Assembly (NCBI GenBank): GCA_001600495.1
Contig: BCKE01000077.1
Location: 65,698 to 90,850, forward strand
Reading direction: 5' to 3'
DNA from: Pilasporangium apinafurcum
Lineage: Eukaryota; Oomycota; Peronosporomycetes; Pythiales; Pythiaceae
Length of the DNA stretch: 25,153 nucleotides
Shown here: piece after piece, positions 1-1,610 of the stretch
Layout: the number at the start of each line of letters is the position of its first letter
Numbering within the stretch: position 1 is the first letter of the stretch
Position numbers and translations under genes: made by a program
The notes under the pieces: model-generated
The model's input: only the letters and a program-made list of their open reading frames with translations
Databases searched by the model: none
What the model was told of the DNA's origin: nothing

Positions 1-303
1 CAAAAAAATATCGAAGTCGCCTTCTTCGAGGAGTCCTGCCAGCTTTACTGGTGTTATAGGCCCAAGAGGGAGTAGGTGTCCGGTACTTTGGTATCTTTGG
101 CATCTATGAGGATCTCCTTAGGCGATTACCGGCAAATAGACTAAAATCGTGTGGACGCGTTTGAGAGATTATTAGACCCCATGGATACTCTTCCTACACT
201 CTGTTCTTCTCGGGGTGACTCGAATGATCTCGGGAGTCTACGTAGGAGACACATGGCGAATATAGGGATATTCTTCGACTGCAAGCAATATTCTCGCAGT
301 TAA
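1..303 (-). pseudogene. 3' fragment of a TnpB/Fanzor-family gene (left, inverted copy)
   Basis: Read on the minus strand, about 285 down to 110 is clearly similar to the 3' part of the larger copy at 728-1600 on the plus strand. Both contain ENI..., a C-L/F-LRRL block, a GTAGGAAGAGTATCCATGG stretch and a CAAACGCGTCCACACG block, in the same order. The fragment starts about at the RD-x-N-A-x-x-N-I motif (degraded, around 275-300) and runs off the window at position 1. The zinc ribbon and everything upstream are missing. It is a dead relic. It also lacks two short tandem duplications that the right copy carries. Confidence 0.55.
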
Positions 304-459
304 CTGTTGTACAAGCGCAGGGATGGATTGACAAACCAAATACTCATTTAGCAGACATTTACGAGCACATCCACAGGACAAAAGATATCGACGACAGCGA
401 GAGTGACAGCGAACTAGAGTTTAGTAGAGAAGAATTGTCCGAGTCCAGTAGCGACTAAT
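297..459 (+). pseudogene. Acidic-tailed ORF fragment, unidentified
   Basis: A reading frame from about 297 encodes a segment with WIDKPNTHLADIYEHI followed by a Ser/Asp/Glu-rich tail (DDSESDSELEF), then a stop at 423-425. Removing one T from the TTTT run at 420-423 would let the acidic tail continue (REELSESSSD) to a TAA at 457-459, so one frameshift is likely. It abuts the left Fanzor fragment and may be the end of another element's protein or of a disrupted host gene. I do not recognise the family. Confidence 0.25.
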
Positions 460-727
460 TGCACCCAGACTGGATACTAACAGTAGCATTCATACACATA
501 TATGATGTCTCGTGGTGATTTCTGGTTGACAAAGAATTGCAAATTGTCATGTGTATATGGATCTTAGACTTGTCGGATCTTGTAGATTTGAGTGAGATAT
601 GGTAAATAAGCAAGTAAAAAAGACTCATAGATGGTGTCGTGTAGTGTAAATGCATTCGACCATCCCATCATAGCCCACCAGTTGGTTCACAAGTACAAGT
701 TGTGTGTCGAGTACTCACACTAGATCG
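460..727. other. Non-coding spacer between element fragments
   Basis: AT-rich, no supported gene. It separates the acidic-tail fragment from the right Fanzor copy. If the right copy was once full length, its missing N-terminal half (RuvC-I region) should lie here, but I see no recognisable remnant. Confidence 0.4.
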
Positions 728-1474
728 ATGAGCCAGGGACCCAAACGCAAGCGCAAGCGCGACGAGTACGAGGCTGATGCGCCAACAAACGATGCACTCA
801 AGTACTCGACCGTCACCATGAAGTGAGTGGCAATTTACCGCAATCCTATCATCCAGCAAGGAGTAAACGAGTGAGTACTGACGATGAAGAAAGTTCAGAT
901 CCGGACAATGGTTACGTTCAAGACAGCATCGTATGAGCAGTATATGACAAACGACAAGTATGTGTGGAGACATCTCGACTTCTTGGTGAGCTTTTGTGCA
1001 TCGCATCCATTTCACAAATGGGGTTTCCTTCAGTCCAGATTTAGTCGAAAGATGTTGGCACATCTGGCAAAGCGATTGGTATCTACACCAAGTCCTCAGG
1101 TTTGCATTGGTCTCGGTGATTGGAGTTAACAGGACTTCATCAAGGGTCACGCGCATGGACCCGTGAAGCGATTCGCATGTGAGCTGGCAAAGTGTGCGAC
1201 TGTGCTGCAGATCGACGAGTACTGGACGAGTCAGTGATGCTCCGAGTGCTACCAGCTTAAGGAGACGTCATTTCCAACGAAAAAAGCTGATGGGAGCATG
1301 GGCATCGAGCTTTCCCACTAGGTTCTCCACTGCAATAACAGCGAGTGCAGAATCATATGGAAATGAGATGTGAATGCGTCGGAAAACATCCTTACGCTCG
1401 CCACGTGTTTTCTACGTAGACTTTCAAGACCATTAGAGTTACGACGAGAAGGAAGGAATGTAGGAAGAGAATAG
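728..1474 (+). pseudogene. Decayed TnpB/Fanzor-family RNA-guided nuclease gene (C-terminal half)
   Basis: One continuous frame runs from ATG 728 to TAG 1472-1474, interrupted by six in-frame stops (824, 872, 1127, 1235, 1319, 1364) but no frameshifts. The product shows a KRKRKR basic patch near the start, FHKWGFLQSRFSRKM, a GLGDWS block, a G-x-x-x-x-P-x-K segment, DEYWTSQ, a zinc ribbon (CSEC at 1238-1249, then HC-x4-C at 1328-1348) and the C-terminal D-V-N-A-S-E-N-I box at 1367-1390. This order (TS..C..C, C..C, RD-x-N-A-x-x-N-I) is the C-terminal signature of TnpB and its eukaryotic homologues, the Fanzor proteins, which are RNA-guided DNA endonucleases carried by transposons. The Arg of the RD motif is now TGA, as expected if CGA mutated. 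The RuvC-I region is not seen, so the copy is truncated as well as full of stops. The motif call rests on memory of the family; non-functional status is direct. Confidence 0.7.
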
Positions 1475-1610
1475 AGTGTAGGAAGAGTATCCATGGACAG
1501 CGGGGGCATCAACCGACTTTTCAAATAGAGAGTCAGCCGACTTTTCAAACGCGTCCACACGGTTAGTCCGTATTCTGGTAAGTGCCAGTAAAAATAGCAT
1601 CTGCATGGGT
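1475..1610 (+). repeat. 3' non-coding part of the Fanzor element, with short tandem duplications
   Basis: Sequence similarity to the left copy continues past the stop to about 1590-1600 (GTAGGAAGAGTATCCATGG, CAAACGCGTCCACACG and a TTAGTC..GGTAA block), then fades, giving an approximate element end. This copy has two small direct duplications absent from the left copy: GTAGGAAGAG twice at about 1460-1487 (the first overlapping the end of the reading frame) and CCGACTTTTCAAA twice at about 1513-1550. Confidence 0.45.

What the first reader, a model, noticed from the sequence alone, without database searches (positions are those of the whole stretch)
728..1474. Relic of a Fanzor/TnpB-type RNA-guided nuclease gene
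One uninterrupted frame, apart from six stops, retains the DEYWTS-x-x-CSEC zinc ribbon and the D-x-N-A-x-x-N-I box in correct order and spacing, plus GLGDWS upstream. This is the C-terminal hallmark of TnpB and eukaryotic Fanzor nucleases. Such genes are often left unannotated because of stops, and related intact copies may sit elsewhere in this genome.
Basis: partly seen in the sequence, partly recalled or inferred. Interest (0 to 1): 0.75.

Follow-up and report, generated by a model that had tools for sequence, protein, structure and literature searches.

The report
Decayed Fanzor1 transposon, internally deleted
A dead, shortened copy of a jumping gene that once carried a eukaryotic RNA-guided DNA cutter (Fanzor1), in a genome with many similar relics, including a mixed family built from pieces of two kinds of Fanzor element.

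Summary
It matches the TnpB/Cas12f zinc-ribbon model above Pfam's cut-off and keeps the Fanzor-type glutamate, four zinc cysteines and last RuvC aspartate. Six internal stops and the loss of RuvC-I mean it cannot encode a nuclease. It lies in a 1.47-kb TA-flanked element (119-1590) whose left end is an inverted copy of the Fanzor 3' end plus right end: an internal-deletion derivative of a Fanzor1 inverted-repeat element ('T'). Near-full-length, stop-ridden T copies exist. Its 3' half is 99% identical to a copy 7 kb away from another family, most simply by gene conversion. That family ('A') is a chimera: IS607-type left end, TnpA remnant and Fanzor2 pieces, then the Fanzor1 RuvC half and a T-like right end. 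In this 36-Mb genome 158 matches to the relic and 150 to the zinc ribbon were scored, both lower bounds. TA-flanked Fanzor1 elements and chimeric Fanzor families are in print; the IS607/Fanzor2-Fanzor1 chimera and double right end look like new variants. Guide-RNA evidence is weak.

The parts
119..120 (.). left TA, one side of a putative TA target duplication
   Evidence: sequence; by analogy, TA at both ends of 34 of 39 two-ended type-A copies
121..279 (-). left arm: inverted copy of the Fanzor1 3' end (last ~30 codons) plus right end; its tip is two bases shorter than the right end
   Evidence: inverted repeats 145-164/1545-1564 (95%), 179-207/1468-1496 (97%), 185-279/1378-1472 (76%); same layout in L071, arms 75-214/695-836
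280..727 (+). body/leader; a short ORF tail (246-455, ...SESDSELEFSREELSESSSD) of unknown origin begins in the arm and ends here
   Evidence: window 126-727 is a repeat: 40 candidates scored of 263, the others 78-86% identical; tail: 70 matches from 71 candidates
728..898 (+). start codon and basic N-terminus of the Fanzor1 gene (MSQGPKRKRKR), 2 stops
   Evidence: 83% DNA identity to L036, 87% to L054, near-full-length T copies
899..1474 (+). Fanzor1 C-terminal part, 4 internal stops; 899 is about the edge of the internal deletion; 899-1590 is 98.99% identical to type-A copy L002
1217..1219 (+). RuvC-II glutamate in the Fanzor ('alternative') position, six residues before CxxC
   Evidence: definition seen in passages of PMC10711439
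1238..1348 (+). zinc ribbon CSEC ... CNNSEC
1367..1369 (+). RuvC-III aspartate of DVNASENI
1475..1588 (+). non-coding right end, candidate reRNA region
   Evidence: aligned over 41 ends; weak structure
1589..1590 (.). right TA
   Evidence: sequence

Best explanation
Window 119-1590 is a dead, non-autonomous derivative of a Fanzor1-carrying, TA-flanked inverted-repeat transposon (family T). SHOWN: it has T's ends, leader, start codon and C-terminus. An internal deletion removed RuvC-I and most of the N-terminal half. Six stops are present. Its 3' half now resembles the neighbouring type-A copy L002 rather than T. INFERRED: the parent worked like other Fanzor1 transposons. A transposase acting in trans moved it into TA sites. 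The Fanzor1 protein, guided by an RNA read from the right end into the flank, cut the vacated donor site so that repair copied the element back. Deletion derivatives were carried along in trans, and copies exchanged sequence by gene conversion. The window copy is now inert.
For: PF07282 over cut-off. Fanzor-type glutamate, C4 ribbon and RuvC-III D retained. Near-full-length relatives with the same leader and/or N-terminus (L036, L044, L051, L054, L060, L047). Inverted ends and TA flanks. By eye in the alignment, two copies share each of three deletion junctions: window+L057, L020+L048, L061+L066. C-terminal tree of 72 loci: the window pairs with L002 (support 1.0) among A copies, while its left half is T-type. 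Ordinary host genes in the same window. L073 matches solved Fanzor1 structures.
Against: No transposase was tied to T. The leader's ORF tail has no Pfam match. Of two long open frames with that tail, the one I could read (L078) is open only through Ns; the other was not obtained. The guide-RNA structure is weakly supported. Direct PDB search with the relic found no Fanzor. Donor-site cutting is recalled from work on TnpB/Fanzor and was not tested here.
Confidence: 0.88

Rival explanations
1. The window element arose by one recombination joining a T left half to an A-type right half (template switch), not by gene conversion of an existing T deletion derivative.
For: The near-identity to L002 starts at the deletion edge (899) and runs to the element's end.
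Against: L057 has the same junction by eye with a T-clade 3' half, so the junction seems to predate the A-like sequence; this rests on one other copy.
Confidence: 0.25
2. A bacterial TnpB gene, from recent transfer or contamination.
For: The NCBIfam and Pfam models hit are TnpB/Cas12f models.
Against: Fanzor-type glutamate position in the window, and DPG RuvC-I in 42 of the 57 loci aligned there, L073 included; L073 matches Fanzor1 chains and no TnpB at E up to 1; neighbours include protein kinase, class I tRNA synthetase, acylaminoacyl peptidase, ankyrin and ING-domain genes.
Confidence: 0.02
3. A functional, domesticated short Fanzor protein rather than a relic.
For: The four zinc cysteines, E and D are all kept.
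Against: Six stops, RuvC-I missing; the near-identical L002 also has stops (4).
Confidence: 0.02

Closest known systems
Fanzor1 Tc/mariner-type elements of Pythium ultimum (PUl-1, PUl-4; Bao & Jurka 2013, PMC3627910; section 7 read)
   Same: Fanzor1 in a TA-flanked TIR element; some carry Fanzor1 only
   Different: Here each arm (~140 bp in L071) repeats the Fanzor 3' coding end as well as the right end; no mariner transposase was identified. Their TIR alignments (figure) were not visible to me.
CMe-1A of Cyanidioschyzon merolae (PMC3627910, passage seen)
   Same: about 150 copies, each ~80% identical to consensus; chimeric: 5' part equals another TE
   Different: In type A here the donor of the 5' part is itself an IS607-type Fanzor2 element, so remnants of two Fanzor types lie in one element.
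IS607-type Fanzor2 elements; mimivirus L79 (PDB 9b0l)
   Same: L075/L076: TnpA remnant plus Fanzor2; L075 matches 9b0l at E 6.3e-25
   Different: Most listed copies carry stops or are partial; no TnpA match reaches cut-off (0 of 111).
SPu-1 / SpuFz1 of Spizellomyces punctatus (PDB 8gkh)
   Same: L073 C-terminal part matches it; TIRs and putative TA (PMC3627910, part read)
   Different: SPu-1 has 33-bp TIRs and 9 of 17 copies with intact ORFs (PMC3627910); all 12 T copies here, window included, have stops in the C-terminal frame.

Membership tests
Fanzor1 | OrfB/Cas12f zinc ribbon (PF07282) | tested here: met
   E 3.4e-6, 27.5 bits over cut-off 26.3
Fanzor1 | RuvC-II glutamate six residues before the first CxxC | tested here: met
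   window E1217-1219; 37 of 44 A and 22 of 25 T/unassigned copies keep E; definition in passages of PMC10711439
Fanzor1 | DPG RuvC-I | tested here: not met
   absent from the window copy (deleted); DPG in 42 of 57 loci aligned there, L073 included. The window is a fragment of a Fanzor1 gene, not a complete member.
Fanzor1 | RuvC-III aspartate after the zinc ribbon | tested here: met
   window 1367-1369
Fanzor1 | similarity to characterised Fanzor1 proteins | tested here: met
   only through the relative L073: 8gkh E 2.5e-9, 9cer 3.6e-5; the relic itself gave none
Fanzor1 | right-end guide RNA and RNA-guided cleavage | tested here: inconclusive
   conserved right end; only weak structure; activity not testable
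Tc/mariner-type element (for T) | TIRs and TA duplication | tested here: met
   TIRs in window and L071; TA on both sides read in the window copy only, with a left tip two bases short; not tallied over T copies
Tc/mariner-type element (for T) | mariner-type DDE transposase in the element | tested here: inconclusive
   ORF tail without Pfam match; PF03184 (DDE_1) has 11 matches from 10 candidates in the genome, not linked to T; other DDE families not searched
IS607-type element (for sister family A) | TnpA serine recombinase | tested here: met
   as a fragment only: NF033518 E 3.1e-9 (L019) and 1.8e-6 (L009), below the 110-bit cut-off
IS607-type element (for sister family A) | matching dinucleotide at both ends | tested here: met
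   TA at both ends in 34 of 39 copies with both ends recognised; a mariner-type TA duplication would look the same

The most novel reading that the evidence does not exclude
Family A was an active hybrid. An IS607-type Fanzor2 element dropped most of its own nuclease and took the RuvC half and guide-RNA end of a Fanzor1, making an in-frame Fanzor2-Fanzor1 fusion that spread to perhaps a hundred or more loci. In T elements, two outward-facing right ends yielded guide RNAs against both flanks.
Probability: 0.1. Interest if true: 0.8.

Novelty: new variant of a known kind. Interest (0 to 1): 0.45.

Why it matters
Why Fanzor genes ride on so many unrelated transposons is an open question. Here one genome holds Fanzor1 inverted-repeat elements, IS607-type Fanzor2 elements and a hybrid of the two, each in many decayed copies. 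It is a natural record of how a Fanzor and its right end pass between transposon types that share the TA dinucleotide. The double right-end layout makes a testable prediction: guide RNAs pointing out of both ends.

Tried and rejected
Selection on the Fanzor frame. In 17 T-clade copies, variants shared by four or more copies favour third codon positions against singletons (45:42 vs 209:101 for positions 1+2: 3, Fisher p 0.008). In 44 A copies the difference is not significant (110:80 vs 130:78, p 0.36). The T-clade set was 11 T plus 6 of 14 unassigned loci that I picked from the tree; the other 8 were left out, of which four (L021, L024, L064, L069) also lie among T copies in the tree. Indels are rare in the Fanzor part of A (2029 substitutions, 20 indels) against the left end (369, 40; 36 copies), but most loci were chosen by translated hits, which favours unbroken frames, so I draw no conclusion.

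The Fanzor2-to-Fanzor1 junction is in frame in 29 of 44 A copies; 14 are off by one, 11 of these with one shared spacing, and 1 off by two (pattern search). That speaks against a needed fusion protein.

Structured guide RNA: three proposed hairpins pair in 87% of cells against 40-50% when slid, but 22 of 500 shuffles reach the observed covariation score, and the hairpins were read off the same sequences. The last 105 nt of 36 right ends are not more conserved than other parts (9.7% substitutions against 6.4% for the left end and 11.1% for the TnpA remnant, my division of the counts).

Transposase for T: two long open frames carried the leader's tail. The C86 one proved open only through Ns; the C22 one could not be fetched. 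Rfam found nothing in the window. No structure prediction was run.

Literature searches: Fanzor with oomycete, transposon+terminal inverted repeats, IS607+chimeric, pseudogene, omega RNA+eukaryotic, mariner, and non-autonomous/MITE (listings only except for two papers). Of PMC3627910 I read the first of seven parts, section 7 and passages; of PMC10711439 passages only. In what I saw there was no IS607-Fanzor2/Fanzor1 chimera and no double right-end layout. Supplements were not consulted and most subscription papers are not held.

Full report
OBSERVATION. The frame 728-1474 is as described, with six internal stops. Pfam returns PF07282 alone, above its cut-off. The signature that separates Fanzors from most TnpBs is a glutamate six residues before the first CxxC (PMC10711439, passages). 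It is present at 1217-1219, followed by the C4 ribbon (1238-1348) and the RuvC-III aspartate (1367-1369). RuvC-I (DPG) is absent. It was deleted: the window matches L073 only at residues 497-679, plus a T-type N-terminus.

THE ELEMENT. The window holds inverted repeats on both sides of the relic. They end next to TA at 119-120 and 1589-1590, giving a 1.47-kb element; the left tip is two bases shorter than the right. The left arm is an inverted copy of the last ~30 Fanzor codons and the non-coding right end. Window 126-727 is itself a repeat (40 candidates scored of 263). One copy, L071, is a MITE-like element of about 0.8 kb with arms of ~140 bp at 78% identity and no Fanzor middle. In L036, L044, L051, L054, L060 and L047 the same leader and/or N-terminus is followed by a much fuller Fanzor1 gene and a right end. 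I call this family T. Six T copies are internally deleted, by eye in three classes of two that share a junction (window+L057, L020+L048, L061+L066). Deleted forms therefore either multiplied or were duplicated.

A RECOMBINANT. From 899 to the element's end the window is 98.99% identical over 692 bp to L002, an inverted copy about 7 kb upstream in the contig, with a run of N between. L002's left half is of another kind. In a tree of 72 C-terminal regions, T copies lie outside a group holding the 44 type-A copies and four unassigned ones, and the window sits inside that group beside L002 (support 1.0; with L004 0.985; the support of the whole group was not read). Gene conversion from L002 or a near relative is the simplest reading.

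FAMILY A. Most members read are about 1.5-1.75 kb. They begin with a left end shared with IS607-type Fanzor2 elements (88-90% DNA identity to L076) and a TnpA remnant (NF033518 E 3.1e-9, below cut-off). Short N- and C-terminal pieces of Fanzor2 follow, then the Fanzor1 part from just before RuvC-I to the end, then a T-like right end. Type-A matches begin at about L073 residue 362-380 or later. L075, an open 504-aa Fanzor2, matches mimivirus L79. L073 matches Fanzor1 structures. So family A combines two Fanzor types. Of 39 copies with both ends recognised (L014 dropped as a duplicate of L013), 34 have TA at both and 20 have TTA on the left and TAA on the right. They appear to have moved as units into TA sites, although their two ends come from different element types. 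What moved them is unknown. IS607 TnpA matches number 111 and none reaches cut-off; the listed matches covering more than 100 profile positions all carry stops. DDE_1 genes with open frames of 366-957 aa exist (11 matches) but were not linked.

NUMBERS. The relic protein gave 158 matches at E up to 1 (150 of 730 candidates scored). PF07282 gave 150 (150 of 852). The Fanzor2 L075 gave 107 matches from 85 scored of 1169. The Fanzor1 L073 gave 67 from 65 scored of 794. Some matches are pieces of one locus, and the lists overlap to an extent I did not compute; candidates beyond those scored make the counts lower bounds. I read 72 loci with the C-terminal part: 44 A, 12 T (window included) and 16 unassigned, L072 and L073 among them. 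L001 (same as the window), L071 and L074-L077 were left out of that set.

MECHANISM. Shown: anatomy, relatives, decay, mosaic structure. Inferred from work on other Fanzors (recalled, and PMC10711439 passages): RNA-guided cutting by the parent, with a guide read through the right end into the flank and a target-adjacent motif at the left flank. From the insertion sites the motif for A would be TTA or TA. The double right end in T would allow guides against both flanks; nothing here shows that RNA is made. Structure in the right end is plausible but not supported by covariation.

AGAINST. Direct PDB search of the relic found no Fanzor. Eleven of 44 A copies share an out-of-frame fusion spacing, and A shows no significant sign of selection, which weakens the idea of a working hybrid protein.

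KNOWN OR NEW. Fanzor1 in TA-flanked elements of Pythium and a chimeric Fanzor family with ~150 copies are in print (PMC3627910). 'Hundreds of copies' is in print too (PMC10711439). The relic is an ordinary, broken member. The sister family A and the arm layout are variants I did not find in the listings and passages seen. Host context: kinase, class I tRNA synthetase, acylaminoacyl-peptidase, adenylosuccinate synthetase, ankyrin and ING genes lie in the same window. The species was not identified.

Noticed in passing
window 1-126: 100% identical over 126 bp to L015 (3289-3164, C14); a PF07282 match lies nearby at C14:557461-557658, so the left flank may be the end of another Fanzor-related repeat. 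Upstream of the window, L001 begins with a long run of N.
   Followed up: partly
L072 (C122:21500-23700): 636-aa open Fanzor1-like frame with Fanzor-type glutamate and RuvC-III D, but H, K and R at three of the four aligned zinc-ribbon cysteine positions (alignment-dependent); no Pfam match at 1e-5.
   Followed up: partly
L074 (C135:16500-18800): 691-aa open TnpB/Fanzor2-like frame; an IS607 TnpA match with four stops (C135:18007-18549) overlaps its N-terminal half. One long close relative (C7:592604, 88%) and short pieces at C71, C1 and C50.
   Followed up: no
type-A copies, Fanzor part (44 loci): 1349 of 2029 differences from the majority are C>T or G>A, with rates raised roughly 1.5- to 3-fold at CpG and CpC: deamination- or RIP-like decay. 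Not compared with single-copy DNA.
   Followed up: partly
C14, C22, C39, C69: Leader repeats of family T cluster on a few contigs, some as opposite-strand pairs with equal scores (e.g. C14:264055/269141), suggesting segmental duplication.
   Followed up: no
L077 (C47:258540-260100): Element with the IS607/Fanzor2 left and right ends whose Fanzor2 is mostly replaced by other sequence; a further hybrid.
   Followed up: no
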